Part shown: positions 4,934-27,546 of the stretch, in pieces
How the letters are laid out: each line of letters starts with the position of its first letter
How positions within the stretch are numbered: the first letter of the stretch is position 1
Origin: a virus
IMG/VR virus record: IMGVR_UViG_3300031251_000061
Coordinates: 1-38,497 of that record
Direction: 5' to 3' (one strand)
DNA: 38,497 nt
Notes under the pieces: generated by a model
Seen by the model: the letters and a program-made list of their open reading frames with translations, nothing else
What the model was told of the DNA's origin: nothing
Databases searched by the model: none
Position numbers and translations under genes: made by a program

Positions 4934-4940
4934 AGAACTA

Positions 4941-5408: not shown

Positions 5409-5429
5409 GATGTTTTCTCCTTTCCCGGG

Positions 5430-6824: not shown

Positions 6825-6832
6825 TGACTTTA

Positions 6833-6857: not shown

Positions 6858-6863
6858 CCCCGC

Positions 6864-7886: not shown

Positions 7887-7936
7887 CCTCGGCCTTGGGC
7901 CGTCTGCTCGCGGAACCCCCGCGCAGGGTCAAAATC

Positions 7937-10138: not shown

Positions 10139-10139
10139 G

Positions 10140-10900: not shown

Positions 10901-10902
10901 GC

Positions 10903-15669: not shown

Positions 15670-15670
15670 C

Positions 15671-15871: not shown

Positions 15872-16284
15872 GCTCTGACTCCGGCTACGTCCTGCTCGCG
15901 GGCGATAATGTGGGTCACGGCTCCAATGACGACGCTCTGGAACAGGTATCCGGCGATCTCCAGCCCACCCAGTTCCACCACGTCTCCGGGCTTGACCTCG
16001 GTCGGGGTGAAATGCTTCGACTGCTTGACGGTGTGGTAGTCCTTGCCGTCAACCTTGCCGCGCTTGTGGATGTTCAGGTACGCGCCGGGGCCCACGGCCA
16101 CGACCACTCCCCTGACGGGGGCGCCATGCCATTGGGCGAGGATGGTGTCCGATTCGATGGCCTCGAGCGGCCTGACCAGGATCTGGTCCCGCAGCATCCT
16201 GACCTTTGCGTCAGCTGGCAGGAACGTAGGTGACTTGTCCGTCATCCGCTTGCCGTCTACCCGGACTGGCTGCTCGTAGTTCAT
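15868..16284 (-). CDS. GroES-like co-chaperonin
   Basis: 138 aa. After a ~25-residue extension comes the Cpn10 pattern: MLRDQILVRPLEAIESDTIL, then RGVVVAVGPGAY, KPGDVVELGG and a C-terminal VIGAVTHIIAREQDVAGV, matching the GroES beta-barrel order. The mobile loop would lie at about 45-55 (ILAQWHGAPV), shorter or different from bacterial GroES. Such phage proteins can replace host GroES to fold large capsid proteins in GroEL. It sits just upstream of the terminase and head genes. ATG at 16245 is an alternative start. Confidence 0.8.
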   Translation of the reverse strand: MNYEQPVRVDGKRMTDKSPTFLPADAKVRMLRDQILVRPLEAIESDTILAQWHGAPVRGVVVAVGPGAYLNIHKRGKVDGKDYHTVKQSKHFTPTEVKPGDVVELGGLEIAGYLFQSVVIGAVTHIIAREQDVAGVRA

Positions 16285-16562
16285 TCGACCACCGACAGTT
16301 CAGGCTTCTTGATCCGGTCCATGTCGTGGTTCGGCTGGAACACATGCCCCAAACGGAAGTGGTCCGGCTCTGTCCGCCCACCGCATTTGGCGTGCTTCTG
16401 GAACCAGCCGTTCAGCGTCTTGTGCGGTGCGTCAGCGTCGTAATAGCCCACCAGCGTGCGGGAGGCGAGCCTCACACCGTGGTCGGGCTTGCCGGCGTTG
16501 AAGCACGGGCTGCAGACGAGGAACAGGGCGTTACCGCCTGGATTGGGGACGGGCTCACTCAT
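16281..16562 (-). CDS. Small hypothetical protein with Cys/His pairs
   Basis: 93 aa. The N-terminal CSPCFNAGKPDHGVR and a later KHAKCGGRTEPDHF could form a metal site, but the spacing fits no family I know. The start and stop overlap both neighbours by 4 bases, so it is a member of the gene chain. Confidence 0.6.
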   Translation of the reverse strand: MSEPVPNPGGNALFLVCSPCFNAGKPDHGVRLASRTLVGYYDADAPHKTLNGWFQKHAKCGGRTEPDHFRLGHVFQPNHDMDRIKKPELSVVE

Positions 16563-16696
16563 TTGGCCTTGCGCTTCCTGTGCTTGGAGTAAGAGATCGC
16601 ACGCTGGGGCTTCGGGAAATCCTTACGGGCCTCCCCAGCCCCCACGAATCGCCCGAGATAGGCGTTCATGGATTCGTGCTGCGCCGGTTCAGGCAT
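16559..16696 (-). CDS. Small basic protein (45 aa)
   Basis: 45 aa starting at 16696 inside the end of the zinc-binding gene, ending ATGA-coupled at 16559. The C-terminus is strongly basic (RAISYSKHRKRKAK), suggesting nucleic-acid contact. A second ATG (residue 10, NAYLGRFVG) is possible. No family is recognised. Confidence 0.5.
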   Translation of the reverse strand: MPEPAQHESMNAYLGRFVGAGEARKDFPKPQRAISYSKHRKRKAK

Positions 16697-16847
16697 CGTG
16701 TTCCGGCCCAGCCTCGGGGGCGCCCTCCGGGGTCTCCAGAACGACGTGCTGGCTCTCGAGGGTGAACCCGCATTCCTTGCACATGAAATCGTCGGTGGTG
16801 ACGCGATAGTTCATCGTGTCGCCGTGACGGGGGCAGGGAGGGTTCAT
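16689..16847 (-). CDS. Small zinc-ribbon-like protein with APEAGP tail
   Basis: 52 aa. C5 and H8 (CPRHGD) with C23 and C26 (MCKECG) could bind one zinc. The C-terminus carries EGAPEAGPEHDA, the same short tag found at the ends of two otherwise unrelated genes (19832-20371 and 26204-26542). The start at 16847 overlaps the previous stop as ATGA. Confidence 0.6.
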   Translation of the reverse strand: MNPPCPRHGDTMNYRVTTDDFMCKECGFTLESQHVVLETPEGAPEAGPEHDA

Positions 16848-17020
16848 CGTGCCCACTTCGCGTGGTTCTTGTCCTCGATTCGGAACTTGATCTGTTCCGC
16901 GCCCGGGTCATGCTCCTTGCGCATCACCTTGCCGACCAGCTTCGCCCCATCGTCCTTGTGGTACGGCTCAGGCATGGGGGCGCCGCTGGGGCGGTTATAC
17001 CGAGGGTCGAACTTCGGCAT
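16844..17020 (-). CDS. Small hypothetical protein (58 aa)
   Basis: 58 aa. It is charged, with a Pro-rich start (MPKFDPRYNRPSGAPMPEPY) and a basic end (FRIEDKNHAKWAR). The start follows the previous stop by one base and the stop overlaps the next start, so the gene is supported by context, not by family. Confidence 0.55.
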   Translation of the reverse strand: MPKFDPRYNRPSGAPMPEPYHKDDGAKLVGKVMRKEHDPGAEQIKFRIEDKNHAKWAR

Positions 17021-17021
17021 T

Positions 17022-17237
17022 TTACTTCTCCGGGGTGTGCATCACGCTCTTGTCGGGATGCTCGGGGACCTTGAAGCGAATGCCATCGCCATGGTTGCCC
17101 TCATGCCCGGGGTGGGTGCCAACGTGTTCCTCGTTGCGGATCGTGCCCGAGCCTGCGCCGTGCGCGCGGCGACCCTCGCCCTTCTCGCTCGCCTTGTTCT
17201 CACGCTCGCCGGACGAAAACTTGTGGGACTTGCCCAT
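17022..17237 (-). CDS. Small very charged hypothetical protein
   Basis: 71 aa from ATG at 17237, seven bases after GAGGA. It is Gly-, His-, Lys- and Glu-rich (KSHKFSSGERENKASEKGEG, then HVGTHPGHEGNHGDG) and likely disordered. Internal His-rich repeats might bind metal. It lies between an HNH endonuclease and other small genes. No family is recognised. Confidence 0.5.
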   Translation of the reverse strand: MGKSHKFSSGERENKASEKGEGRRAHGAGSGTIRNEEHVGTHPGHEGNHGDGIRFKVPEHPDKSVMHTPEK

Positions 17238-17284
17238 TTCGGCATCCTCAGATGGTGGTTTAGATGCGCGCACGTAGTTGCACA

Positions 17285-17911
17285 CTACACCGTTTTATCA
17301 TGGTGGGTCTGTTCGGTCAAGCCCATAAGCTTTCTTCCTTTGGACAGATTTTCTTTGGCCGAGATAATTCGGAGGTTTCCCGGGACATGTAGACCGCTCA
17401 CTGCCTTGCCGGCGATCGGAACGATATGATCGACGTGCCACCGTATTTCGCCAGCGGCTTGGTTTCTGCGCCGGCATTCCCGATAAATTGACCGAACCTC
17501 GTCTCTATCGGCCCATCGAACCTGCGCATACAGCATCCTGGCGCGCCTCATATTGAGACCGCGCAGCTGGGCGGTTTCGATGATGGCCCGTGTTCTGCTG
17601 AATTCCTCGTCTTTCCTGATTGCCTTTTCGAGCCTAAGTTGCAGGAAAGTGATTGGATGCGGGTTTGCTAGATTGGGTGGGTGCTCAAGATTCATGCCCA
17701 GCCATGCCATGAACTTTTGAGGGGCCATCGTCAAATCTGGCTGGGGCATTTTTATCGCGTAGACGGTTTCCCACGCTGAGACCAGCCCCGACTTCACGAA
17801 CCACGAAAAATAGCGCCCATTCTCCTTGCGTCTTTCCGATAGGATCAGCCGCTCCCGATGCGCTTTTTCTGCTTCGATCTGCTGCGACGTCAGCCTTCTT
17901 CGGTTGAGCAT
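17285..17911 (-). CDS. HNH endonuclease
   Basis: 208 aa. The C-terminal part has WHVDHIVPIAGKAVSGLHVP with GNLRIISAKENLSKGRK, giving D161-H162, N179 and N188, the HNH core. The N-terminal 140 residues are helical and basic, probably for DNA binding. The gene is visibly richer in A and T than its neighbours, especially near its 3' end, which suggests later arrival as a homing-type element. It directly follows the possible late regulator. A packaging-associated HNH is less likely, because it is far from the terminase. Confidence 0.85.
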   Translation of the reverse strand: MLNRRRLTSQQIEAEKAHRERLILSERRKENGRYFSWFVKSGLVSAWETVYAIKMPQPDLTMAPQKFMAWLGMNLEHPPNLANPHPITFLQLRLEKAIRKDEEFSRTRAIIETAQLRGLNMRRARMLYAQVRWADRDEVRSIYRECRRRNQAAGEIRWHVDHIVPIAGKAVSGLHVPGNLRIISAKENLSKGRKLMGLTEQTHHDKTV

Positions 17912-17913
17912 GG

Positions 17914-18255
17914 CTATTCAGTCAGCCTCACGTGGACAGCCCATTGAGCTTCCTCAAGTTCGTCGTAGTACCGCCGGCTGTTGATCCCGAGCCGCGCCAG
18001 CAGTTCTCGCACTGCACAATCCCGCTGGTAGTGGACGATCAGCCGCCGCTGGAGGTGCCGCTCCCCGTCATGCGCCAACCTCGCTATCGCCCCGTCTACG
18101 GCCATTACGCCCTCTGGGGGCTCTCCCCTGCCACTGATGCGCATCTCCATGTTCCATGCCGTTGGATAGCCTCCTACGCGGTGCAGGGACCATCTTCCCC
18201 ATACGTTGAGCGTGGCCTGCGTGTATGCGAACGAGTAGGGGACGACTTGCGTCAC
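17914..18255 (-). CDS. Possible late-gene regulator (antiterminator Q-like or sigma-region-4-like)
   Basis: 113 aa. The C-terminal half (RRLIVHYQRDCAVRELLARL then GINSRRYYDELEEAQWAVHV) resembles the helix-turn-helix end of small phage antitermination or ArpU-type regulators. The N-terminal half has WSLHRVGGYPTAWNMEMRIS. In lambdoid genomes such a gene sits at the end of the early rightward arm, before the late genes, and here it is in that place. No zinc site is visible. The role is inferred from motif shape and position. Confidence 0.55.
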   Translation of the reverse strand: MTQVVPYSFAYTQATLNVWGRWSLHRVGGYPTAWNMEMRISGRGEPPEGVMAVDGAIARLAHDGERHLQRRLIVHYQRDCAVRELLARLGINSRRYYDELEEAQWAVHVRLTE

Positions 18256-18752
18256 TTCCGCGCCTCGAGGATGAACACGAACGTCCCGCCCTCGATCCTC
18301 GCCATGAGCGGCTTGAAGTCTGCCCGGTAGATGTGCCGGTAGTCGGTCATCACAGCGGTCTGGCGCACATATTCACCCTGATCCAGGTACGTGAGGGATT
18401 CCAAGCTGATCTGGCGCGTGTGCCCCGGGTCGCCCCACACCCACGGGGAGGTGGAGGCCGGGACGGTCGCGAATAGCCTACCGCCCGGTTTAAGAATCCG
18501 CCATATCTCGCTGAAATGCTCAAAGAAAGACACGTAGTCCCCCTGCCGTCCCAGATGCTCCAGCACCTCGTAGGCGTGGACCTCGTCGTACGCGTTATCC
18601 GCAATGGGCCACGGGGTGAGATTCAGGTCCCAGAGGATATCGGGCTCGCAGTCGGGGTAGAGGTCTAGCGTCGTGAGGGCTGACCATTCCGGCGGTCCGA
18701 GGGCGACCCGCTTCTCCCGAGACCGGCCACAGCCTAGAAGTAGCTCACTCAC
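18252..18752 (-). CDS. Class I SAM-dependent methyltransferase (early arm)
   Basis: 166 aa from GTG at 18752, overlapping the lipoprotein stop; this gives motif I (LLLGCGRS) close to the N-terminus. It continues with LDLYPDCEPDILWDLNLTPW, AYDEVHAYEVLEHLG and IWRILKPGGRLFATVP, a Methyltransf_11-like layout. It is unrelated in detail to the methyltransferase at 10337-10900. The substrate is unknown; small molecule, glycan or protein are all possible. Confidence 0.75.
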   Translation of the reverse strand: MSELLLGCGRSREKRVALGPPEWSALTTLDLYPDCEPDILWDLNLTPWPIADNAYDEVHAYEVLEHLGRQGDYVSFFEHFSEIWRILKPGGRLFATVPASTSPWVWGDPGHTRQISLESLTYLDQGEYVRQTAVMTDYRHIYRADFKPLMARIEGGTFVFILEARK

Positions 18753-18924
18753 GGGGGCGCACCGGGCCACCGTGGCGGGGGGCGGGGTAATGGCGCTCCT
18801 CGAGCGTTCTGGACGCCTCGTAGCCCACCACGATGGCTGTCCCGACGCAAAGCACCGGATGCTCACGGCAGGCCGCACAGCCGGTCAGGGAAAGCACTAG
18901 AAACAGGGCGCTAACGGTTTTCAT
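18745..18924 (-). CDS. Small lipoprotein
   Basis: 59 aa from ATG at 18924, with AGGAAGGA upstream. A short basic start and hydrophobic stretch end in the lipobox LTGC (C16), followed by CAACREHPVLC and a hydrophobic segment. The tail is charged and Pro-rich. It could act at the outer membrane like an Rz1 spanin or in exclusion of other phages, but it is far from the lysis genes and lacks a partner. Confidence 0.7.
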   Translation of the reverse strand: MKTVSALFLVLSLTGCAACREHPVLCVGTAIVVGYEASRTLEERHYPAPRHGGPVRPRE

Positions 18925-19105
18925 CTGAATATCCTTCCTGGTCGTGTGGCGGGACGTACTCGTCATGGTCGTCCCGGAAAATCTTCAACTCGATCGGCGC
19001 GTCTATCGCAACGCGCACAGAACTCCCCCGAATCCGACTGATCCTGATCCAGATGTCGGGGCCGATCTGGATGGCCTCACCCTCCTTTCGCGTGATGACT
19101 AGCAC
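18911..19105 (-). CDS. csrA: CsrA/RsmA-family RNA-binding regulator
   Basis: 64 aa starting with GTG at 19105. It aligns without a gap to bacterial CsrA over the first 44 residues: MLVITRKEGEAIQIG, then VRVAIDAPIELKIFRDD, keeping L2, T5, R6, G9, E10 and the key RNA-binding R44. The acidic tail (YVPPHDQEGYSDENR) differs from E. coli CsrA. CsrA dimers bind GGA motifs near ribosome binding sites and block or stabilise mRNAs. The phage copy could retune host carbon, biofilm and motility regulation or act on phage mRNAs. It overlaps the genes on both sides. Confidence 0.92.
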   Translation of the reverse strand: MLVITRKEGEAIQIGPDIWIRISRIRGSSVRVAIDAPIELKIFRDDHDEYVPPHDQEGYSDENR

Positions 19106-19380
19106 TTAGCCCACCAGCAGCTATTCCCCTCCCGCTCATGCTCGCGGCTGATCTTGCCGATGTCCTTCAGGTCCGAGAGCCGACGGCGCACCTGATACTC
19201 GCCGAGGCGCGTGACCACCATCAGTTCGGGGGCTGTGATCCCGGGATGGGCCTTTACAGCCGCCAGGACCATTTCGGCATGGGATACCCGCGGGCCTCGA
19301 TTCATCCGCGCCTCGGCCTTCCTGGAGGTTTCAGGGTCACGTCTGTGCGAGACCGGCGGGAACAGGCTTTCCTGGATCAT
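19099..19380 (-). CDS. Winged-helix DNA-binding protein
   Basis: 93 aa from ATG at 19380 (AAAGGA six bases upstream); a GTG at 19395 is less likely because it overlaps that site. The opening (IQESLFPPVSHRRDPETSRK) is common to small phage proteins, followed by HPGITAPELMVVTRLGEYQV and RRRLSDLKDIGKI, a helix-turn-helix with wing. It overlaps the csrA-like gene, so both are probably translated together. Its target is unknown. Confidence 0.75.
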   Translation of the reverse strand: MIQESLFPPVSHRRDPETSRKAEARMNRGPRVSHAEMVLAAVKAHPGITAPELMVVTRLGEYQVRRRLSDLKDIGKISREHEREGNSCWWAKC

Positions 19381-19447
19381 GGTTTTTCCTTTCACTGGAA
19401 TTTAGATTCTATGTTGGTTCCCGCACGGATGCGGTTTCGGGTTAGAC

Positions 19448-19570
19448 CTATGGTTTGTGCGTGAACAGCCAGACCAAGTACCCGCAGAGCGCAATGATTG
19501 CCACCCCGCAGGCGAATATCCCCGCCTCCTCCAGACGGTCCATCTGCCTCTCACAAGGATCATCGTCCAT
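19448..19570 (-). CDS. Small membrane protein (40 aa)
   Basis: 40 aa from ATG at 19570, inside the end of the nuclease gene. An acidic N-terminus is followed by one transmembrane helix (AGIFACGVAIIALCGYLVWL) and a short basic tail. It is followed by a 67-base gap that holds a small CCGCA-TGCGG hairpin and a TAGAAT box, a weak promoter candidate for the downstream genes. Confidence 0.6.
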   Translation of the reverse strand: MDDDPCERQMDRLEEAGIFACGVAIIALCGYLVWLFTHKP

Positions 19571-19835
19571 GCATGCTCCAAATCGTCAGCTGGTTCCTGA
19601 CATCTTCGGCGGTCCTGAGGTATGGGACGTTGAACCGGGCACAAAACTCGTTCTGCTCCCGCTGGTCACTCCGCAGTCGCCTCCCCGGCGTCTTGCATTC
19701 AGCCATCCACCAGTGTCCTGCATAAAATACCAGCAGATCGACGGGTTTATGCATTCTGAGTACGTAGGCCCCGGATGCTTCCAGCGCTTCGACGACGATG
19801 GGTTCTGATTCGTCACGTTTTGCAGCGCGCCTCAC
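19560..19835 (-). CDS. VRR-NUC / PD-(D/E)xK nuclease
   Basis: 91 aa. The core is VDLLVFYAGHWWMAECKTPG (D33, E46, K48) followed by RLRSDQREQNEFCARF, matching the D...ExK plus Gln pattern of phage VRR-type nucleases. These are thought to act on branched DNA in replication, recombination or packaging. E11 may complete the site. It lies in the replication-side cluster, overlapping its neighbours. Confidence 0.85.
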   Translation of the reverse strand: MRRAAKRDESEPIVVEALEASGAYVLRMHKPVDLLVFYAGHWWMAECKTPGRRLRSDQREQNEFCARFNVPYLRTAEDVRNQLTIWSMHGR

Positions 19836-20371
19836 GGCCCCGCCTCGGGCGCAGCTACAGCCGCATACTTCTCGTTGCGCCCCATGTCGCAGCCGCTATC
19901 AGGCTCCCAGCACTCGTCGGTGTGCTGATGCTCGGGCGCAGCGTCACGGCGCAGGATGTCGCCCATGCTCTCGCCCTTGGCGGGCGCAGCGTAGAGCTTC
20001 CGGGTCAACGTGGCGATATGGTCCGCGTGGCTATTCGCTACGTGCTTCCATTCGTCACGCTCCGCCAGCGCCTCGTTAGCCTGCCGCTCGTACTCTGCGC
20101 AACGCTTCATCAGCGCCACGGTGCGCTGATTGTTCGCCCATACGCTGAACCGATTCTCGCCGTCTAGCTCTGCTCGCGCCAAGTCGAGTTGGGCGCGGAG
20201 GGCATCGCACTCCATCACTCGTTCGCATAGCTGGCGGTTCTGTAGCGCCTTATCGCGCTGATGCGTCATCGCGGCCAACTCCGCACGCGCATTGGACAGA
20301 GTATTGTAAAGCCTACCGACAATCTCGGCATATTCCATCGCCTGCTTCCAGCCTTCCTCGGCGTAATTCAT
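19832..20371 (-). CDS. Coiled-coil protein with APEAGP tail
   Basis: 179 aa. A long helical coiled-coil region (~20-125; SNARAELAAMTHQRDKALQN and similar) precedes a Cys/His stretch (EHQHTDECWEPDSGCDMGR) and the C-terminal YAAVAAPEAGP. The last 20 bases of this tag (19836-19855) occur again, on the opposite strand, at the end of 26204-26542. The start at 20371 is ATGA-coupled with AGGAGGG. The function is unknown. Confidence 0.7.
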   Translation of the reverse strand: MNYAEEGWKQAMEYAEIVGRLYNTLSNARAELAAMTHQRDKALQNRQLCERVMECDALRAQLDLARAELDGENRFSVWANNQRTVALMKRCAEYERQANEALAERDEWKHVANSHADHIATLTRKLYAAPAKGESMGDILRRDAAPEHQHTDECWEPDSGCDMGRNEKYAAVAAPEAGP

Positions 20372-20651
20372 CTCACCCTCCTGGATATCACCCTACACCC
20401 CGTCGCACGCTTCAGGTCTGCGTACTTGGCATACTCTCGCCAGATGATCTCGTCGAGTTCTGCACCCGTAACGTACGTACGTCTTCGTGGAGCCACTGCG
20501 GCCACTGGTCTTTCGGGGTCGCCTTGCACCACTCCCGCCACGTCTTCAGGTACGCGGAGTTCTTCGGCAAATAGCGCGGGCTGATGATCTGGCCGTGCGG
20601 GTCTCTTGGCAGGCATCTATCCTCCGAGGATCGGGCTTCAAGCGTTCTCAT
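20368..20651 (-). pseudogene. Small gene apparently frameshifted at an ACGT repeat
   Basis: One frame (20412-20651) begins ATGA-coupled to the upstream gene and reads YLKTWREWCKATPKDQWPQW to LHEDVRT. A second frame takes over at the tandem ACGT repeat (20471-20482) and reads TYVTGAELDEIIWREYAKYA to RRVR, ending ATGA-coupled to the next gene. Adding one ACGT unit joins them into about 95 aa. Either the genome or read assembly lost one repeat, or the shift is a real phase switch. No family is recognised. Confidence 0.6.
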
Positions 20652-20787
20652 GGCTTTTCCTAGAATTCTGGTCCTCGGTCGCTCTGCGCTGGCTCTCGTG
20701 TACCGCGATGATGAAGGTTAGCCATGAACCCCCGACAGCCAAAACAGCCACCAACAGAAGCATTAAGACCGCTACCGGGGCGCTCAT
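20638..20787 (-). CDS. Small membrane protein (49 aa)
   Basis: 49 aa from ATG at 20787, with AAGGATTAGGGG directly upstream. One transmembrane helix (VLMLLLVAVLAVGGSWLTFI) is followed by a charged, probably cytoplasmic tail (HESQRRATEDQNSRKS). The stop overlaps the start of the next gene. The function is unknown. Confidence 0.6.
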   Translation of the reverse strand: MSAPVAVLMLLLVAVLAVGGSWLTFIIAVHESQRRATEDQNSRKSHENA

Positions 20788-20790
20788 CCC

Positions 20791-20916
20791 CTAATCCTTG
20801 ATCGCGTTGACGATCGCCGCGGTGCAGCCGACGAGTAATACCCCGATCCCGTCAGCCAGCCAGTATGCGACGCAGAGCGCGGCAATACCCGCAATGAACT
20901 TCAGAGCTTGTTTCAT
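20791..20916 (-). CDS. Small membrane protein (41 aa)
   Basis: 41 aa starting at 20916 as ATGA with the replication gene stop. It is almost wholly hydrophobic with two short segments (FIAGIAALCVAYWLADGIGV and LLVGCTAAIVNAIKD). No family is recognised. Tight coupling to the replication gene supports translation. Confidence 0.6.
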   Translation of the reverse strand: MKQALKFIAGIAALCVAYWLADGIGVLLVGCTAAIVNAIKD

Positions 20917-21503
20917 GACTTGAGTTTCATCCTGTCTGCGGTTTTTCCGACCAACCGATGTAAATCGTCCGTCGTCCCCGTAGAACGAAGAGAAGACGAA
21001 GAACCGTTATGTGACGGTGGGGAGGGAGATCCGGAGTTTGCGTATGTGTTTGTGTCTGCGTCTGAGGGCGGGATACGGCGGGACTCGTCGGGACATGTCG
21101 GGACATTCCCCTCTTTGGCTGATTCCCGCTCCCTGCGCTTTCGGGCTGCATCTGCCCCGGATGCGGTCCTTTCGATGTCGTATGCGGCCTTTCTGGCCCG
21201 GTTCCGGTATTTCTCGAAATTGACGATTCTCCATCCCCACGGCCGATCCGGGTCGATGTTGACCAGCCGCCTACCTTCCATAGACTTGCTTCTGCTATAC
21301 GGGTCTGGAGCGCAAAGACGCTCAATACAATCAATGACTTCGATTAGCGGAAGACCGGTGATCCCGGCGATGTAGTTCGGGGTCACATCGATCTCCCCGT
21401 ACTTGTTCGCCATGGATAGGAGGATCGGCCAAAGCCCGATATCCGGCCACTTCCCACTAAGCGTGCCGGTGGTCAGGGTGTCAAAAAGTGGCGTGTATCC
21501 CAT
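20913..21503 (-). CDS. Replication protein, winged-helix O-like initiator
   Basis: 196 aa. The N-terminal ~90 residues (MGYTPLFDTLTTGTLSGKWP, SMANKYGEIDVTPNYIAGIT, then GRRLVNIDPDRPWGWRIVNF) match a widespread phage replication-protein N-domain that binds DNA. The rest is a disordered, Ser/Pro-rich linker. In place it matches lambda O: first gene after cro, with repeats in its own coding sequence at 21069-21104. I see no helicase, so the host helicase is probably loaded. A short basic C-terminus may bind a partner. Confidence 0.75.
   Translation of the reverse strand: MGYTPLFDTLTTGTLSGKWPDIGLWPILLSMANKYGEIDVTPNYIAGITGLPLIEVIDCIERLCAPDPYSRSKSMEGRRLVNIDPDRPWGWRIVNFEKYRNRARKAAYDIERTASGADAARKRRERESAKEGNVPTCPDESRRIPPSDADTNTYANSGSPSPPSHNGSSSSLRSTGTTDDLHRLVGKTADRMKLKS
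21069..21104. repeat. Four 10-bp iterons (CGGGAC) inside the replication gene
   Basis: CGGGAT at 21069 and CGGGAC at 21079, 21089 and 21099 are spaced exactly 10 bp apart, one DNA turn. They lie in the low-complexity linker region of the replication gene, as the lambda origin iterons lie in O. This is a candidate origin of replication. Confidence 0.65.
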
Positions 21504-21507
21504 TTAT

Positions 21508-21534
21508 CGGGACTCCGGTGGGACATGGCGGGAC
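21508..21534. repeat. Three iteron-like repeats just upstream of the replication gene
   Basis: CGGGAC at 21508, TGGGAC at 21519 and CGGGAC at 21529 have spacings of 11 and 10 bp. They share the core with the repeats inside the gene. They cover the ribosome binding site region of the start at 21503, so binding could also repress the gene. Confidence 0.6.
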
Positions 21535-21548
21535 AAATAGGTATACTC

Positions 21549-21634
21549 ACGCATAGCGGCAGAGCCCTACACCCAATATGCGTCAATGGGGCTCGAACAA
21601 GGCACCCGGGCCGTGTAGGCCAACGAGACCCGGG
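21549..21634 (-). other. Structured intergenic leader between cro-like and replication genes
   Basis: This 137-base gap (21504-21640) holds three inverted repeats: ACGCATA/TATGCGT (21549-21555 and 21577-21583), GAGCCC/GGGCTC (21562-21567 and 21589-21594) and CCCGGG/CCCGGG (21605-21610 and 21629-21634). The first two interleave, so in RNA they are a pseudoknot or mutually exclusive. It may be an antitermination, attenuation or operator region. Confidence 0.5.
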
Positions 21635-21640
21635 ATGCTT

Positions 21641-21811
21641 TCACTTGACCACCTTGAACTTGCCCCTTGTCAGTAGGGCAATCTGGTATTGCCGCATCTT
21701 CGGCACCTTCCCTGCGGCCAGCCACTGGTAAATAGCCTTGTTGGTCACGCCCAGCTCCTTGCGAGCGGCCTCGACCGATCCCCAGTGTTCAACAATCGTT
21801 TTTGGGTCCAT
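21641..21811 (-). CDS. cro: Cro-like repressor
   Basis: 56 aa. MDPKTIVEHWGSVEAARKEL with GVTNKAIYQWLAAGKVPKMR is a Cro-type helix-turn-helix with the wing-like end ALLTRGKFKVVK. It resembles P22 and lambda-type Cro in size and order. It is the first gene of the minus arm. There is no Shine-Dalgarno before ATG at 21811, and the -10 box ends seven bases upstream, so the mRNA may be leaderless. It probably binds the inverted repeats at 21816-21859. Confidence 0.88.
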   Translation of the reverse strand: MDPKTIVEHWGSVEAARKELGVTNKAIYQWLAAGKVPKMRQYQIALLTRGKFKVVK

Positions 21812-21815
21812 GTGG

Positions 21816-21834
21816 CTAGAATATTCTTTTCTAG
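21816..21834. promoter_or_regulatory. Inverted repeat operator candidate 1
   Basis: CTAGAA (21816-21821) and TTCTAG (21829-21834) form a 19-bp inverted repeat over the minus-arm -10 box. An 8-bp palindrome TTCTAGAA (21829-21836) overlaps its end. The likely ligand is the Cro-like protein. Confidence 0.6.
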
Positions 21835-21846
21835 AACGCTTGACAA
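21818..21846 (-). promoter_or_regulatory. Minus-arm promoter (P-R-like)
   Basis: TTGTCA (+ strand 21841-21846) lies 17 bases from TATTCT (+ strand 21818-21823) in minus orientation. The predicted start is about seven bases beyond the -10 box, at or next to the cro-like ATG (21811). This drives cro-like and replication genes. Confidence 0.7.
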
Positions 21847-21859
21847 GGGATTCAAGCGT
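21836..21859. promoter_or_regulatory. Inverted repeat operator candidate 2
   Basis: ACGCTTGA (21836-21843) and TCAAGCGT (21852-21859) are perfect 8-bp arms around an 8-base spacer. The repeat covers both -35 boxes, so one bound dimer could close both promoters. Its arms differ from operator candidate 1, which hints at a second regulator or a second site class. Confidence 0.6.
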
Positions 21860-21867
21860 GCTTTAAA
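21840..21867 (+). promoter_or_regulatory. Plus-arm promoter (P-L-like)
   Basis: TTGACA at 21840-21845 is a consensus -35. TTTAAA at 21862-21867 follows at 16 bases (or TTAAAG at 17). The first plus-arm gene starts at 21895, about 28 bases on, with its own GAGGAGA ribosome binding site. The -35 overlaps that of the minus promoter by 5 bases. Confidence 0.75.
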
Positions 21868-21894
21868 GTCACCTCACCTACCGAGGAGACCGCG

Positions 21895-22053
21895 ATGACT
21901 GACCCCATCTACATCGACAAGCACGGCCGGCGTTACATTCGCGTCGCAGAGACCAAGGGCGGCCTTTACGCTTGGTTTCGTCCCGAGGCGCACGCTGACG
22001 ACAGTTACTACGATGTCAGCCGCAAGGTTGCTGATATGCAGGTGGCGGCATGA
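21895..22053 (+). CDS. First plus-arm protein, small hypothetical (52 aa)
   Basis: 52 aa from ATG at 21895 with GAGGAGA five bases upstream. It is mixed and soluble (YIDKHGRRYIRVAETKGGLY, then AWFRPEAHADDSYYDV) and may be a small beta-hairpin fold. As the first gene from the divergent promoter it is a candidate early regulator or takeover protein. No family is recognised. Confidence 0.6.
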   Translation: MTDPIYIDKHGRRYIRVAETKGGLYAWFRPEAHADDSYYDVSRKVADMQVAA

Positions 22054-22160
22054 ACCCGACCATCCCAGAGCAGATCGAGAACGGCATCGCCTATGCCGGC
22101 CTGATCGGTTCAGGCTTCCTGATCACCATCAGCCTGCTGCTCGCGTGGGGCGTGCTGTGA
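22050..22160 (+). CDS. Small membrane protein (36 aa)
   Basis: 36 aa, ATGA-coupled at 22050. An amphipathic start (MNPTIPEQIENGIAYAG) runs into one transmembrane helix (LIGSGFLITISLLLAWGVL). The stop is overlapped by the next GTG start. The function is unknown. Confidence 0.55.
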   Translation: MNPTIPEQIENGIAYAGLIGSGFLITISLLLAWGVL

Positions 22161-22318
22161 GCGACCCTAAGCTCACCCCTGAGGAGATTGAGGCCCTAGA
22201 CGAGGCCCTGCGCATGGACCGCGCCAGAGAGGCGTACGAGGCGTCCCGCGCAGAGGCTTACCGCGAGCGAATGAACGATCGCGACAACGACACAATGATG
22301 TGGAGGAGAGACCAATGA
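22157..22318 (+). CDS. Small acidic helical protein (53 aa)
   Basis: 53 aa from GTG at 22157, GTGA-coupled to the previous stop. It is a charged helix (LTPEEIEALDEALRMDRARE, then YEASRAEAYRERMNDRDND). It has no recognised family and could be a small regulator. The stop overlaps the next ATG. Confidence 0.5.
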   Translation: MSDPKLTPEEIEALDEALRMDRAREAYEASRAEAYRERMNDRDNDTMMWRRDQ

Positions 22319-22539
22319 TCTGGTTACACCCGGCCATGACGGCCGATCAGATAGCCGACTGGTGCGAGAAGAATCGCATGGTCGTCACCATCGAATACAC
22401 CTATGACGCAGAGGGCAAGGTCACGCCGCTGATCTCGGCCCGCGAGGATCACCTAGACCCGTCGGTGCCGCTCTACCTGCGAGCCGATCGGTTCCAGGAT
22501 CAGCCGCTCCCGTCCTTGCTTCTTCGCCAAGCGGAGTGA
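22315..22539 (+). CDS. Small hypothetical protein (74 aa)
   Basis: 74 aa from ATG at 22315, with GGAGGAGAG upstream; an in-frame GTG at 22300 lies before that site and is less likely. The sequence (MTADQIADWCEKNRMVVTIE, then YTYDAEGKVTPLISARED) looks like a small alpha/beta fold. No family is recognised. Confidence 0.6.
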   Translation: MIWLHPAMTADQIADWCEKNRMVVTIEYTYDAEGKVTPLISAREDHLDPSVPLYLRADRFQDQPLPSLLLRQAE

Positions 22540-22541
22540 CC

Positions 22542-22772
22542 ATGAACATCGCATTGTTCAAAAACCTGCGCTGGGACTTTGAGACTGCCTTTGGCCCAAC
22601 CGCCCCCACAGATGCCGAGTACGTGCGGGTTAGCGAGTGGGTTGATGTGGAATTCCCGCCCCGGGCCGAGATGGCTATTCAATCGGATATAGCCACTAAG
22701 GCTGACGCCATAAATGATGAATTTGATACCCGCAAGCGACAGGCCCTTGAGCGTATTGGAATCAAGCCATGA
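22542..22772 (+). CDS. Small hypothetical protein (76 aa)
   Basis: 76 aa from ATG at 22542, with GGAG five bases upstream. It has an aromatic N-terminus (NIALFKNLRWDFETAFG), VSEWVDVEFPPRAEM in the middle and a helical C-terminus (KRQALERIGIKP). It is coupled by ATGA to the next gene. No family is recognised. Confidence 0.6.
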   Translation: MNIALFKNLRWDFETAFGPTAPTDAEYVRVSEWVDVEFPPRAEMAIQSDIATKADAINDEFDTRKRQALERIGIKP

Positions 22773-22924
22773 GCCGCATCAAGGAATGGGCGATGGAGCA
22801 GCCCGACACGTCAGAGGATGACGCTGCGTGCGTAATGCAGCAGCCGGAATGGCAGGCCGAATACGAACTATGGCTGGATCAGGTGGAGGAGCAGAGCGAT
22901 GGAATCTCAAACGAACATGCGTAA
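22769..22924 (+). CDS. Small acidic protein (51 aa)
   Basis: 51 aa, strongly acidic (MEQPDTSEDDAACVMQQPEW, then YELWLDQVEEQSDG). It overlaps the start of the ERF gene by 26 bases. Acidic small proteins before recombinases can be DNA mimics or inhibitors of host nucleases, but nothing specific supports that here. Confidence 0.5.
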   Translation: MSRIKEWAMEQPDTSEDDAACVMQQPEWQAEYELWLDQVEEQSDGISNEHA

Positions 22925-23633
22925 TCCGCTAGGCGGACAAACCGCAGCGGACTTCGCGGCCAAGGCCCCGCCGACAGCGTCATCCTCTCCGTGCGTCTAC
23001 GGCGCGATTGTCGAGGTCATCACCGGCCTCGGCAAAGAGGGCATCACGAAGGACCGCAAGAACACCCAGCAGAACTACGCTTTCCGCGGCATTGACGACG
23101 TGTACAACGCGCTGTCGGGCCAGCTGAGCAAGGCCGGTCTTTGCATCCTTCCCCGCGTACTGGCTCGGACTGTGACCGAACACGCGAGCAAGAGCGGCGG
23201 GGTGCTGTTCTACGTCACGCTGGACGTGGAGTTTGACCTTGTGGCCGCACGCGATGGCAGCAAGCACACGATCCGGGCGTTTGGCGAGGCGATGGATTCC
23301 GGGGACAAGGCCACGAACAAAGCTATGTCAGCCGCCTATAAGTACGCCTGCATGCAGACCTTCTGCATCCCGACCGAGGGCGATAACGACGCCGACCAGA
23401 CCACCCATCAGGTCGTTGGCAAGACCCCGCTGGCCGTCAACGTGGTGGACGAATACCTCAAGGCGTTCCGCGACCGGCTGGTGAAGAAGAACCACGCGGG
23501 GGTGTTGGCCTGCCACGATGACCTGATGGCTGAGGGCCAGGAATCGTACTCGCAGGTGTGGCGCCAGCTGGGCCCCGGCGAGCGCGCAGCGATCAAGGAC
23601 GCCATCGCGCTGGCGAGGGATGAAAAGCGATGA
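22899..23633 (+). CDS. erf: ERF-family single-strand annealing recombinase
   Basis: 244 aa. The N-terminal half (YGAIVEVITGLGKEGITKDR, NYAFRGIDDVYNALSGQLSK, then GEAMDSGDKATNKAMSAAYK with YACMQTFCIPTEGDNDAD) is the ERF domain. ERF proteins form rings that anneal complementary single strands and circularise phage DNA after injection, as in P22. The start at 22899 has GGAGGAG seven bases upstream, the best in this arm. The C-terminus is a separate helical domain (DEYLKAFRDRLVKK). Confidence 0.93.
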   Translation: MESQTNMRNPLGGQTAADFAAKAPPTASSSPCVYGAIVEVITGLGKEGITKDRKNTQQNYAFRGIDDVYNALSGQLSKAGLCILPRVLARTVTEHASKSGGVLFYVTLDVEFDLVAARDGSKHTIRAFGEAMDSGDKATNKAMSAAYKYACMQTFCIPTEGDNDADQTTHQVVGKTPLAVNVVDEYLKAFRDRLVKKNHAGVLACHDDLMAEGQESYSQVWRQLGPGERAAIKDAIALARDEKR

Positions 23634-23860
23634 GCATGGACCGCTGCGGTAAGTGCGGGGACCTCGTAGACACCGACGACGACCCGGATGCGTACATCGA
23701 TGACGAATGCATGTGCGAGGCGTGCCGGGAGCGGCTGTACGTCCCCTGCGATACCTGCGGGGATCTGGTGCGCAAAAGCCACATCGCGTCTGTCAGGGGC
23801 GAGCCGGTTGAACGGGGCGGCAGGGACGAGTATTACTCTCTGTGCGGGAGGTGCCGGTGA
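23630..23860 (+). CDS. Zinc-ribbon-like protein
   Basis: 76 aa with four Cys pairs: CGKCGD, CMCEACRE, CDTCGD and CGRC. These could form two zinc ribbons. The start overlaps the ERF stop as ATGA. A small zinc protein beside a recombinase may bind single-stranded DNA or assist annealing, an inference from position. Confidence 0.7.
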   Translation: MSMDRCGKCGDLVDTDDDPDAYIDDECMCEACRERLYVPCDTCGDLVRKSHIASVRGEPVERGGRDEYYSLCGRCR

Positions 23861-24186
23861 GCAATCCAATCATCACTGAACAGCAGCTGGAGAACGCGCT
23901 GCTGTTCCTTGCCGAATCCGATCACGAATACGCCAACGAGAAGGCGCAGTTGGAGCGGTCGAACATCCTGTGCAAGCGGGTTCGGTCGAGGATATTCCTC
24001 GCGGCGACCGGGACCGTGGCCGAAAGGTCTGCACGGGCCGAGATCGAGGCAGAGACCGAACAGGCCGATGACGACTACTGCAAAACCATCGCCAAGTTCG
24101 AGACGTTGAAGGCGAGGCGCGAGCGTGCTGAGATCGTGGTCCGCGTGTACCAGACGCTGGAAGCGACGCGAAGGACTCGGGTATGA
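23857..24186 (+). CDS. Coiled-coil protein beside the recombinase genes
   Basis: 109 aa from GTG at 23857 (GTGA overlap, GGGAGG upstream). It is a single long helical region (ENALLFLAESDHEYANEKAQ, LERSNILCKRVRSRIFL, then EIEAETEQADDDYCKTIAKF) of the kind found next to ERF-type recombinases in other phages. A partner or accessory role in annealing is inferred. The function is not known. Confidence 0.65.
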   Translation: MSNPIITEQQLENALLFLAESDHEYANEKAQLERSNILCKRVRSRIFLAATGTVAERSARAEIEAETEQADDDYCKTIAKFETLKARRERAEIVVRVYQTLEATRRTRV

Positions 24187-24458
24187 ACCTGCGTAATAAC
24201 GCCCGCGATCAGCCGTGCATGGTCCGGGTTCCTGGAGTCTGCAATGGGAATCAGCAGACGGTCGTACTGGCTCACTACAGGCTTGCTGGGGTGTCGGGGA
24301 TGGGCATCAAGGGTCCGGATGTTATCGGCGCTTACGCGTGTTCTGCTTGCCACGCACATATCGACTCGCACCACGACGATGCGACGAAAGTAATGCACCT
24401 AGAGGGCATGGTCAGAACGATCAATCTGCTGGTTAAGGCGGGGCACCTGAGATGGTAG
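24183..24458 (+). CDS. YbcO-like (DUF1364) nuclease
   Basis: 91 aa. [20 protein letters not shown], then [20 protein letters not shown] and [12 protein letters not shown] carry the Cys/His pattern of the DUF1364/YbcO family, thought to be a single-strand-directed nuclease of the lambdoid nin region. The N-terminal NxRN and the CxxCH segment are both present. It is ATGA-coupled to the coiled-coil gene. Confidence 0.85.
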
Positions 24459-24568
24459 ACAAAGACAAACAGGAACGCGAGAACGAACGCCTCGCCGCAT
24501 TCATCGGATTCGGATGCCTTATGGCTGCGCTCGCGCTGATCTGCAAGCTCTTTGGGTGGGCGCCGTGA
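24452..24568 (+). CDS. Small membrane protein (38 aa)
   Basis: 38 aa from ATG at 24452 inside the end of the nuclease gene. A very charged N-terminus ([14 protein letters not shown]) precedes one transmembrane helix ([20 protein letters not shown]). The stop is overlapped by a GTG start. The function is unknown. Confidence 0.55.
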
Positions 24569-25149
24569 GAGCAGTAAAGACCGAGAACGTCATGAGAAAG
24601 CCTGTCGTGGCTTTGGACGACCCGCAGGGCGCCATCGACCGAATTAAGTCATTCGTCTGTGTGAGCGATTCTGGCTGTTGGGAGATGACCAAAAAGATTA
24701 ACAAGTTCGGGTACGCGCAGATAAGCTATCAGAACGAGCTTTACATGGCTCACCGGCTGATGGCGATCGCCACGTTCGGCCCGTTCGATCCGGTCCTCCA
24801 GGTATGCCACAAGTGCGACAACCGCAAGTGCGTGAACCCGGACCACCTGTTTATCGGCACGCGGTCGGATAACGTGCGCGACTCAGTAGCGAAGCGTCGT
24901 CACCACCTGTCCCGCAAGACGCATTGCGTCCGTGGGCACGAACTGTCGGGCGATAACGTTCGATACCACAAAAGCGACTGCAACGGAGTTCGCCGCATGT
25001 GCGTTACCTGCGCCCGCATTACGCAGCGCCTAAAAGCAGGTTGGCCCAAGGACAAAGCCGAGTCAATGCCGATTACCCCGATGGGGCATAGGCCGGTCAA
25101 CGGGAACTTTCATCGCCCTCGCCCGTCGTCAACGAGTCTGCCGAAATGA
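24565..25149 (+). CDS. HNH homing endonuclease-like protein
   Basis: 194 aa from GTG at 24565 (GTGA-coupled); ATG at 24592 is an alternative. H63-R64 and [20 protein letters not shown] at 80-99 form an HNH_3-type site, followed by [14 protein letters not shown]-terminal zinc-like part ([12 protein letters not shown], then [10 protein letters not shown]) is common in these proteins. It breaks a row of small genes and is likely a mobile homing gene. Confidence 0.85.
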
Positions 25150-25766
25150 GGGTCCGCATCATTTGCGAGTTTTCAGGACGGGTCCGTCAGGCATTCCGCG
25201 AGCGTGGGCATGACGCCCGGAGCAACGATCTACTGGAAGCCGAGGACGGTAGCCCGTTCCATGACGTGGGCGACGTGCGGCGGCTTAGATCTGACTACTG
25301 GAAGGGTGTTGACCTGGTGATAGCCCATCCACCTTGCACGCACCTGGCCGTCTCAGGGGCTAGGCATTTCTACAGAAAGGCCAAAGAGCAGGCCGAAGCG
25401 TTGGAGTTCGTGCAGTGGCTGATGGACCTGCCGGTGCCATGTATCGCCATCGAGAATCCCATCAGCATCATCAGCAGCCGCATCAGGAAGCCGGATCAGA
25501 TCATCCAGCCGCACATGTTTGGGCACCCAGAGTTCAAGGCTACGTGCCTATGGCTGAAGGGCCTGCCAAAACTCACGCCAACCTACCAGATTGAAGTGCC
25601 ATCCAAGGGTACGGACGAATGGAAGCGATGGAACAAGGTCCACCGGATGCCGCCAGGGCCTGACCGCTGGAAGGAGCGCAGCCGTACGTTCATCGGGATA
25701 GCCGAAGCGATGGCGGCGCAGTGGGGAGCAGAGGTAGCGCGATCACATAGTCCGGAGGGAACATGA
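25146..25766 (+). CDS. C5-cytosine methyltransferase-like DNA modification protein
   Basis: 206 aa. The opening [20 protein letters not shown] (SAM-binding-like), then [20 protein letters not shown] (PPC at 62-64) and CIAIENPIS (ENP at 103-105) are the motifs of C5-cytosine methylases, in a small phage family that lacks the usual target-recognition domain. It could modify phage DNA against restriction or have lost activity. It overlaps the HNH gene by 4 bases. Confidence 0.75.
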
Positions 25767-25906
25767 TACTTAAAGCTGTGTTGGCCTTTTTCTCGCTGAT
25801 GTTCGCGGCCGGTGGTGGCGCGCTTATCGAGGAAGGCAAGACCAGATCAGGATTCTTCGGGCTGTTTCTGGCTCTCTGCGGAATAGCCGCGGCGATTTTT
25901 TCGTGA
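25763..25906 (+). CDS. Small membrane protein (47 aa)
   Basis: 47 aa, ATGA-coupled with GGAGG upstream. Two hydrophobic helices ([20 protein letters not shown] and GFFGLFLALCGIAAAIFS) are joined by a charged EEGKTRS turn. The function is unknown. Confidence 0.6.
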   Translation: MILKAVLAFFSLMFAAGGGALIEEGKTRSGFFGLFLALCGIAAAIFS

Positions 25907-25937
25907 GAGCATTTCACAGCGCAGAAGGTGGTCTGAA

Positions 25938-26207
25938 ATGAAGTCATACCGCGTGTATCTGAAGGGCCACAACACCTTCATATTCGGTGAGTGCGTGTAC
26001 TACATTCGGGATCTGCCGTCGCAGATTCTCACCTTTTACAACAACGATGGCGAAGTGCTGGCGTGCGTGGCTGACTGGTCTGCCTTCTACATCAACGACG
26101 AGCCAGATGAGCCAGAGGCGCCCGCCTCTGCCGTGAAAGAACGCTGGTGGAGACGCTTGGCCATGAGACTAGGTGTGGCCGCGACACCTGCGCGGGAGGA
26201 CAAATGA
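25938..26207 (+). CDS. Hypothetical protein with ATP tail
   Basis: 89 aa. The N-terminal half is beta-rich (SYRVYLKGHNTFIFGECVYY, then RDLPSQILTFYNNDGEVLAC). The basic, Trp-rich part KERWWRRLAMRLG precedes VAATPAREDK, whose coding bases (26179-26190) match a short part of the 21-base repeat that ends the two later genes. No family is recognised. Confidence 0.65.
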   Translation: MKSYRVYLKGHNTFIFGECVYYIRDLPSQILTFYNNDGEVLACVADWSAFYINDEPDEPEAPASAVKERWWRRLAMRLGVAATPAREDK

Positions 26208-26542
26208 GCGAGAAACGCAGGACCCTGGACGATGTGCGCGCAGATCATGAGCGTGGATACACCCTGTCATTTGGTGAGGTGCGGCTACTGTTTGAGCGGC
26301 TCGACGAGGCGCGTGCGGAGTTGGCGAAGGTGACGGTCGAGCTTGCCGACGTGGCTACTATCGCTGAGTCACGCAAGGTGAAGTACGAACACCTTCGGTT
26401 CCTGATCGAGAGCCACAACGCGACGTGCCGCATGGCCTGCAACGGTTCGGACTTCCTGATACGGATGCCAGACAGCTTTGATCTAAGCGGAAACGGTAAT
26501 CACGCTTACGCCGCTGCGCCCGAGGCGGGGCCTAAGCCATGA
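26204..26542 (+). CDS. Coiled-coil protein with APEAGP tail
   Basis: 112 aa from ATG at 26204, ATGA-coupled with GGGAGG. A basic helical start (SEKRRTLDDVRADHERGYT) leads into a coiled coil (LFERLDEARAELAKVTVELA). The end reads YAAAPEAGPKP, encoded by a 20-base stretch (26513-26532) also found at the end of 19832-20371. The function is unknown. Confidence 0.65.
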   Translation: MSEKRRTLDDVRADHERGYTLSFGEVRLLFERLDEARAELAKVTVELADVATIAESRKVKYEHLRFLIESHNATCRMACNGSDFLIRMPDSFDLSGNGNHAYAAAPEAGPKP

Positions 26543-26862
26543 ACGACAAAGAGGCACGCCACGAACTATGCAACGCGCTGGCGCTAATTATCCAGAACAC
26601 AGAGCTGTATTTAGGTAGGGGCAGCGTTCAAGGGCACTTCTGCGACTTTCGCCGAGAGGTGCAGTCAATCCACGACCGGGCGAAGCACGACTACAAACGG
26701 TGCGTGGATAGAGCATCTTTACAGCAGTCTGATGCTCCCTGCGCCCATCAGCGGCTGACGTTCGTTGATGATGACGGCACCGAATACTGCGTGGACTGCG
26801 CTACGAAATTGAGCGCCTCCGCCAAGCCCGCGACACCTGCGCAACCGGAGGAAGGGAAGTGA
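26539..26862 (+). CDS. Hypothetical protein with Cys/His motifs and KPATP tail
   Basis: 107 aa. A helical first half (ARHELCNALALIIQNTELYL, RREVQSIHDRAKHDYKRCVD) precedes PCAHQRLTFVDDDGTEYCVD and C, a possible zinc site with four Cys/His. The last residues KPATPAQPEEGK are encoded by a 21-base stretch (26819-26839) repeated exactly at 27106-27126. Confidence 0.65.
   Translation: MNDKEARHELCNALALIIQNTELYLGRGSVQGHFCDFRREVQSIHDRAKHDYKRCVDRASLQQSDAPCAHQRLTFVDDDGTEYCVDCATKLSASAKPATPAQPEEGK
26819..26839 (+). repeat. 21-bp direct repeat at gene 3' ends (pair with 27106-27126)
   Basis: Bases 26819-26839 are identical to 27106-27126 and both encode the AKPATP segment near the C-terminus of otherwise different proteins. 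A 12-base part also occurs at 26179-26190 at the end of a third gene. The repeat lies just before each downstream ribosome binding site. Confidence 0.9.
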
Positions 26863-27146
26863 GCATCTACTGGACGCGAACCGAGGATGCTAACGCGCCA
26901 TCGAACAAGATGCTTGTGCTGGCGTTCCCTAGTCCCTACTCGCACAGCGGGCTGGAGTACGCCATTGGGTCATTCGCCTCTGATGGAATTGATTCACCCG
27001 ACGGAGCGCCGGGCTGGTTCGATAGCGACGGGTACAGGCTAGACATAGACCCGGTGTATTGGTGCGCTGTCACGCTACCGCGTGGGTGGCTCGCGCTCCG
27101 CGCCGCCGCCAAGCCCGCGACACCTGAGAAAGAGGGCGAGACATGA
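26859..27146 (+). CDS. Hypothetical protein with KPATP tail
   Basis: 95 aa from GTG at 26859 (GTGA-coupled, GGAGGAAGG upstream). The body (MLVLAFPSPYSHSGLEYAIG, then DSDGYRLDIDPVYWCAVTLP) has a compact alpha/beta look and ends in LPRGWLALRAAAKPATPEKE. The last part is the repeat-encoded tail. The function is unknown. Confidence 0.65.
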   Translation: MSIYWTRTEDANAPSNKMLVLAFPSPYSHSGLEYAIGSFASDGIDSPDGAPGWFDSDGYRLDIDPVYWCAVTLPRGWLALRAAAKPATPEKEGET

Positions 27147-27295
27147 GCTACATAGGGGACGGAATCGCAGCGGCGATGGTCGCGACGATGTGGTTTCTGG
27201 TTGCGCTCGGAGTGGCGATCGGATGGATAGCGTTCATCGGTTTGCCGTGGGCATGGCACGCGCTGCGCCCTCTGATTCACCAGTGGACGGGCTGA
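27143..27295 (+). CDS. Small membrane protein (50 aa)
   Basis: 50 aa, ATGA-coupled at 27143. A long hydrophobic region (IAAAMVATMWFLVALGVAIG, then WIAFIGLPWAWHALRPL) could cross the membrane twice. The function is unknown. Confidence 0.6.
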   Translation: MSYIGDGIAAAMVATMWFLVALGVAIGWIAFIGLPWAWHALRPLIHQWTG

Positions 27296-27345
27296 CCATG
27301 CGAGCAGTTGTCCAGCCATCAGATCAACCGAAATGACGCAACCCC

Positions 27346-27546
27346 ATGACGCATAACCCTTTCGGCCCTCACGACTATGGCGGGCCGTCATACTGGTTAA
27401 GACCCCAGGATACGGAGATGGAGCGCAAGCACCTCGCGTTGCTCAACGAGGCCGAACGTCTCGAGCGACTATCAGCGGCCCTGCTTCGGGGTCAGCGCGC
27501 GGATCGCCTTGCCGAGCCAAAACCCGGCGGTCTCGATATCGTCTGA
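27346..27546 (+). CDS. Last plus-arm protein (66 aa)
   Basis: 66 aa. It opens NPFGPHDYGGPSYWLRPQDT and continues as a helix (ERKHLALLNEAERLERLSAA). It is preceded by about 50 bases without a gene and its last 75 bases overlap the end of the minus-strand gene at 27472-27696, tail to tail. The overlap region would allow antisense interaction. Confidence 0.55.
   Translation: MTHNPFGPHDYGGPSYWLRPQDTEMERKHLALLNEAERLERLSAALLRGQRADRLAEPKPGGLDIV

What the first reader, a model, noticed from the sequence alone, without database searches (positions are those of the whole stretch)
21811..21897. Compact bidirectional switch with a probably leaderless Cro-like gene and no CI gene
Two promoters point away from each other and share most of their -35 boxes (TTGACA at 21840-21845 and TTGTCA as 21841-21846 in the minus sense). 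The minus -10 ends seven bases before the cro-like ATG and there is no Shine-Dalgarno, so transcription should start at or next to the ATG. Two different inverted repeats (CTAGAA..TTCTAG and ACGCTTGA..TCAAGCGT) cover both. Bound protein would close both arms of the whole phage at once. No CI-like or integrase gene is seen, so the logic differs from the lambda switch, where cro and cI compete.
Basis: partly seen in the sequence, partly recalled or inferred. Interest (0 to 1): 0.75.

Follow-up and report, generated by a model that had tools for sequence, protein, structure and literature searches.

The report
Leaderless N15-type Cro switch without CI
A phage genome that has lost the genes for dormancy keeps only the Cro half of the classic lambda-type switch: one tiny repressor, probably made from an mRNA that begins at its own start codon, with two matching binding sites placed so that it can turn down both halves of the genome.

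Summary
The anatomy is real and the reading is partly right. The window has a perfect 127-bp end repeat, so the genome is complete (38,370 bp) and absences count: no integrase, resolvase, HTH_3 or S24 hit. All well-supported genes run outward from the 83-bp gap 21812-21894. The 56-aa protein is a P22_Cro member, closest to N15 Cro. Its promoter ends 6 nt before the ATG with no Shine-Dalgarno. This is a family habit: 20 of 36 P22_Cro-family genes have such a promoter against 1.8 expected, and PY54 cro is leaderless by RACE (PMC4488713). The two 'different' inverted repeats were mis-parsed. The gap holds two tandem copies of one 16-18-bp operator, O1 21828-21845 and O2 21850-21867, centres 22 bp apart (p=0.0013). 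Scanning the whole genome with the proven N15/phiKO2 Cro operator gives its best hit at O2. O1 covers both -35 boxes; O2 the rightward spacer and -10. Best reading: the Cro half of a P22/N15-type immunity region without cI, turning down both arms. A complete distant relative has the same design with its own operators; the closest relative keeps a CI-like gene. Known parts, new variant. No binding or RNA data exist.

The parts
21641..21811 (-). cro-like gene, 56 aa, N15/P22-type Cro
   Evidence: Pfam P22_Cro E=3.8e-16, 59 bits; PDB N15 Cro 2hin E=2e-10, P22 Cro 1rzs E=6e-5; 47% identity to N15/phiKO2 Cro
21841..21846 (-). cro promoter -35 (TTGTCA)
   Evidence: sequence
21818..21823 (-). cro promoter -10 (TATTCT), 6 nt before the ATG; predicted +1 = A of ATG at 21811
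   Evidence: promoter 5-9 nt before ATG p=0.002
21840..21845 (+). rightward early promoter -35 (TTGACA)
21864..21869 (+). rightward early promoter -10 (TAAAGT)
21828..21845 (.). operator O1, TTTCTAGAACGCTTGACA (16-bp core 21829-21844); covers both -35 boxes (all but one base of the leftward one) and part of the cro spacer
   Evidence: operator pair p=0.0013; 9/14 to N15 OR3, second best in the gap
21850..21867 (.). operator O2, ATTCAAGCGTGCTTTAAA (16-bp core 21851-21866); covers the rightward spacer and start of its -10
   Evidence: best match to N15/phiKO2 OR3 in the whole window, 11/14; exact match to TTNNAGCNNGCTNNAA
21883..21888 (+). Shine-Dalgarno GAGGAG of the first rightward gene
   Evidence: sequence
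21895..22053 (+). first rightward gene, 52 aa, not a recognisable regulator
   Evidence: no PHROG or significant Pfam hit
21895..27546 (+). rightward (PL-like) arm, includes ERF recombinase 22899-23633
1..21811 (-). leftward (PR-like) arm: cro, early genes, terminase, portal, capsid; continues across the circle join to 38497 and down to about 27693 (tail, lysis)
1..127 (.). terminal direct repeat, identical to 38371-38497: complete, circularly assembled genome

Best explanation
This is the Cro half of a P22/N15-type phage immunity region from which the CI half is absent. Shown by sequence: one divergence point serves the whole genome; the cro gene heads the arm that carries late and lysis genes, and the opposite arm carries the ERF recombination gene, as PL does in P22; two similar N15-type operators sit between the promoters. 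Inferred mechanism: on infection both promoters fire at once. The cro mRNA begins with AUG and is translated without a leader. The 56-aa protein dimerises, binds O2 first (closer to the N15 consensus) and shuts the rightward arm, and at higher level binds O1, which covers both -35 boxes, so it also limits its own arm. With no CI there is no lysogenic state to choose. The circuit is a delayed negative feedback that caps early transcription during lytic growth.
For: Complete genome with no integrase, resolvase, HTH_3, S24, ParA or protelomerase. P22_Cro/N15 Cro identity. Leaderless geometry p=0.002 and 20/36 in the family versus 9/192 control ORFs; PY54 cro RNA starts at AUG (PMC4488713), and its -10 lies about 6 nt before the ATG. 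Operator pair p=0.0013, with N15 itself as positive control returning its known OR3. N15 OR3, which the phiKO2 Cro was shown to bind (PMC4997575), finds O2 as the best site in 38.5 kb and O1 as second best in the gap. Complete distant relative L029 (123-bp end repeat) has a lone P22-type cro with -10 7 nt from ATG, no integrase or HTH_3, and three copies of its own operator-like motif AGGYNNRCCT, one at the cro -10 and two on the divergent promoter. P22 carries erf in its left operon.
Against: No binding, RNA or phenotype data. phiKO2 and PY54 Cro bind only OR3 and apparently do not repress their own gene (PMC4488713, PMC4997575), so self-repression here may not hold. O1 is a weaker match (9/14). 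The centre bases of O1/O2 (AC, GT) differ from the TG/TA tolerated by phiKO2 Cro. TAAAGT is a 4/6 -10. Close relatives share structural genes but not this switch, so the operators themselves could not be checked by conservation. Promoters inside the arms are not excluded.
Confidence: 0.68

Rival explanations
1. Cro here controls only the rightward arm through O2, as phiKO2 and PY54 Cro control only the divergent cI gene through OR3; it does not repress its own promoter.
For: In phiKO2 and PY54 Cro binds only OR3 and not its own promoter (PMC4997575, PMC4488713). O2 is the better N15 match (11/14 against 9/14) and lies on the divergent promoter, as OR3 does.
Against: O1 is part of a significant pair and overlaps the cro -35. 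In L029 an operator-like copy abuts the cro -10.
Confidence: 0.2
2. The 56-aa protein is the lysogeny repressor itself (leaderless like lambda cI), and the phage is temperate without an integrase, for example as a plasmid.
For: Lambda cI and PaaR2 are leaderless (PMC8630535); an integrase-less podophage with a single HTH regulator at the divergence has been proposed to be temperate (VvAW1, PMC3558961).
Against: The gene heads the arm with late and lysis genes, so it could not be made in a quiet lysogen without a terminator behind it, and no convincing terminator is seen. No ParA-type or protelomerase gene found. Family is Cro, not CI.
Confidence: 0.07
3. CI and integrase functions exist but are too diverged to be recognised.
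For: Many small unknown proteins in the rightward arm give no hit.
Against: Relatives' CI-like and integrase genes are readily found by the same profiles; no rightward gene next to the switch looks like a DNA-binding protein.
Confidence: 0.05

Closest known systems
immB switch of telomere phages N15, phiKO2 and PY54
   Same: Cro of the same family (47% identity to N15/phiKO2 Cro); 16-bp operators of the same consensus (TTNNAGCNNGCTNNAA); leaderless cro proven in PY54; divergent arrangement
   Different: No CB/CI gene and no protelomerase found; divergent partner is the recombination arm; operators 22 bp apart (26 in N15) and one lies on the cro promoter
P22 immC (c2-cro, PL/PR)
   Same: Cro family; cro heads one arm and erf sits in the opposite arm; podovirus with P22-like packaging and tail genes
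   Different: P22 cro has a leader with Shine-Dalgarno and keeps c2 and gene 24 between PL and PR
Lone-cro phages: L029 contig (IMGVR_UViG_3300011445_000012) and Pseudomonas phage AH02
   Same: Cro-like gene alone at the divergence point; no CI or integrase found (L029 tested by profile; AH02 by annotation only)
   Different: Operators differ in sequence; AH02 cro has a leader with Shine-Dalgarno; Cro identity only 30-39%
Closest relative L003 (TerL 83%, MCP 93%)
   Same: Same structural arm and a homologue of the 196-aa protein behind cro
   Different: Carries a divergent HTH_3 CI-like gene and an unrelated XRE-type cro at the same place: the immunity module has been swapped

Membership tests
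P22_Cro (PF14549) | profile score over the curated cut-off | tested here: met
   59 bits against 30.2
N15-type all-alpha dimeric Cro | sequence relation to N15 Cro | tested here: met
   phmmer E=2e-10 to 2hin
N15-type all-alpha dimeric Cro | strong dimer in solution | not testable with these tools
   needs purified protein
N15/phiKO2/PY54 immB switch | divergent prophage repressor gene (CI/CB) | tested here: not met
   no HTH_3 or S24 hit in the complete genome; first divergent gene has no regulator hit
N15/phiKO2/PY54 immB switch | 16-bp OR3-type operator | tested here: met
   best site in the genome is 21851-21866, 11/14
N15/phiKO2/PY54 immB switch | leaderless cro mRNA | tested here: inconclusive
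   geometry fits (-10 ends 6 nt before ATG, no SD, p=0.002); no RNA data
Lambda/P22 bistable switch | competing CI and Cro at shared operators | tested here: not met
   no CI gene
Lambda/P22 early-arm control by Cro | Cro operators over both early promoters | tested here: inconclusive
   O1 and O2 lie over both promoters; binding itself not shown
Temperate phage | integrase or plasmid maintenance gene | tested here: not met
   other relatives have PF00589 hits

The most novel reading that the evidence does not exclude
A stable Cro-only design: in phages related to P22/N15-type temperate phages that lack CI and integrase, a leaderless Cro with two operators packed between two overlapping promoters is the only switch-type repressor at the divergence point and times the shut-off of both arms (rightward first, then its own). 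Leaderless translation would be a conserved feature of much of the P22_Cro family, letting the regulator be made under conditions in which ordinary initiation is disturbed.
Probability: 0.35. Interest if true: 0.62.

Novelty: new variant of a known kind. Interest (0 to 1): 0.45.

Why it matters
Cro is almost always studied as the rival of CI. A complete genome that keeps a Cro with its own operators but no CI isolates Cro's lytic job (capping early transcription) as a unit that selection can retain by itself, and an 83-bp two-operator module is small enough to test fully. The family survey adds that leaderless start sites, proven among the relatives I found only for PY54, look widespread in P22_Cro-type regulators.

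Tried and rejected
Single-protein searches for close homologues of this Cro in viral contigs gave one distant hit; a profile from eight Cro proteins was too diverse for the locus finder. IR1 (CTAGAA..TTCTAG) as the main operator: its position over the -10 fits a loose family trend (12 of 19 leaderless promoters have a palindrome arm of 5 or more in the last 40 nt, 5.3 expected), but the string is not unusual by itself and has no second copy; kept only as a minor possibility. A hairpin right behind cro (21605-21634) as a terminator: no T-run, folding z = -1.5. Rfam: no hit. A 3.3-kb query around the switch found only ERF-gene fragments among sequenced phages. AP-20-A (PMC13299392) turned out not to be about Cro.

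Full report
Setting. The window is one virus record of 38,497 bases. Bases 1-127 equal 38371-38497 exactly, so the record closes on itself; the tail-protein reading frame also runs on through the join. The genome is therefore complete at 38,370 bp and statements about missing genes can be tested. From 21811 all well-supported genes run leftward through terminase, portal and capsid, across the join, and down to about 27693 (endolysin-like 28594-28944; phrog_1544 protein 28061-28612); from 21895 to 27546 they run rightward, including an ERF recombinase. The plus-strand ORFs at 27789-28588 lie opposite an ORF with a strong profile hit and are probably not genes. So 21812-21894 is the only divergence point.

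The protein. The 56-aa product of 21641-21811 (minus) scores 59 bits against Pfam P22_Cro (cut-off 30.2). Nearest solved structures are N15 Cro (2hin, E=2e-10) and, more distantly, P22 Cro (1rzs). Nearest named phage proteins are those of N15 and phiKO2 (47% identity).

The start. TTGTCA-17-TATTCT is followed by six bases and the ATG, so RNA polymerase would start on the A of ATG; no Shine-Dalgarno is present, in contrast to the rightward gene at 21895 (GAGGAG). I asked whether this is chance. In 36 non-redundant P22_Cro-family genes taken from phages, viral contigs and bacterial genomes, 20 have a sigma-70 promoter ending 5-9 nt before the start codon at p<=0.05 against shuffles of their own upstream DNA (1.8 expected); long control ORFs from related loci give 9 of 192. 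The window is among the best (p=0.002). PY54 cro, from the N15 group, was shown by RACE to start at its AUG (PMC4488713), and its sequence has CATAAT six bases before the ATG. P22 cro itself has a leader. Leaderless initiation is thus the likely state here and common, not universal, in the family. Sampling was by availability and start codons were chosen by profile position, so the fraction is approximate.

The operators. The first type occurs in 18% of shuffles of the gap, the second in 1.2%. A search for pairs of similar palindromic sites found instead two tandem copies of one site: O1 TTTCTAGAACGCTTGACA (21828-21845) and O2 ATTCAAGCGTGCTTTAAA (21850-21867), centres 22 bp apart, p=0.0013 over all site shapes tried. 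The same method applied to N15 returned TTATAGCTGGCTATAA, its OR3 within the annotated operator region, and a second site 26 bp away (p=0.003, the floor for that run), and on the L029 contig two copies 24 bp apart (p=0.003). As an independent test I scanned the whole window with N15 OR3, identical in phiKO2 and shown by gel shift to bind phiKO2 Cro (PMC4997575): the single best hit in 38.5 kb is O2 (11 of 14 half-site bases), and O1 is second best within the gap (9 of 14). The chance that the top hit falls in this 83-bp gap is about 0.002. The pattern TTNWAGCNNGCTWNAA, written after this comparison, is found among all fetched loci only here, in the N15 group and once elsewhere. O1 covers the rightward -35 box and all but one base of the leftward one; O2 covers the rightward spacer and the first bases of its -10.

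Relatives. The terminase has more than 200 relatives in viral contigs and relatives in bacterial genomes such as Dyella, Paraburkholderia, Novosphingobium and Sphingomonas. Several of the longer contigs carry an HTH_3 CI-like gene and a tyrosine integrase. The closest one, L003 (TerL 83%, capsid 93%), has a CI-like gene and an XRE-type Cro at this very place, so the immunity module has been exchanged. The L029 contig (39,695 bp, 123-bp end repeat) shares the present design: lone P22-type cro, -10 seven bases from the ATG, no integrase, HTH_3, S24 or resolvase, and three copies of AGGYNNRCCT, one at the cro -10 and two on the divergent promoter; the motif occurs nowhere else in the 12.2 kb read. 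Pseudomonas phage AH02, P22-like and complete, is annotated with a lone Cro at its divergence point and no integrase or CI.

How it works, by inference. Both promoters fire on infection; Cro is translated from a leaderless mRNA, binds O2 and closes the rightward arm, then O1 and limits its own arm. The order rests only on similarity to the N15 site. Against self-repression: phiKO2 and PY54 Cro apparently do not control their own gene. Without CI there is no bistable choice; this is the lytic half of lambda/P22 logic, described in the P22 record as turning off early gene expression during lytic growth.

Verdict. A genuine, compact Cro-only switch; parts known, combination a new variant.

Noticed in passing
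window 18911-19105 (-): CsrA-like RNA-binding regulator (Pfam CsrA 58.9 bits) in the leftward arm. A leaderless cro without a GGA-containing Shine-Dalgarno might escape it, while the rightward leader GAGGAG might not; untested idea.
   Followed up: no
window 36409-37218 (-): Protein with a SET domain (36.2 bits, cut-off 22.4) in a phage structural arm; lysine methyltransferase-like domains are unusual in phages.
   Followed up: no
window 1-127 and 38371-38497: Perfect 127-bp end repeat; the record is a complete genome.
   Followed up: yes
L156 (EBPR podovirus 1) 223-564: Annotated start of gp55 (Cro) is probably 33 codons too early: homology and a TTGACA-17-TACATT promoter 7 nt before ATG 322 point to a leaderless start there.
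   Followed up: partly
L029 5849-5928: Three copies of AGGYNNRCCT at the two divergent promoters of a second CI-less phage, one abutting each -10.
   Followed up: yes
L003 4871-5583: Closest relative carries an unrelated CI/Cro pair at the same spot although structural genes are 83-93% identical: immunity module exchange.
   Followed up: partly
window 21605-21634 (-): GC-rich hairpin CCCGGG...CCCGGG just behind the cro stop codon, no T-run; could be an attenuator or antitermination site.
   Followed up: partly
window 25146-25766 (+): DNA methyltransferase family protein (phrog_757, E=5e-68) with no restriction partner noticed.
   Followed up: no
window 19099-19395 (-): 98-aa winged-helix-like protein (weak FaeA/MarR hits), a possible second regulator in the leftward arm.
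   Followed up: no
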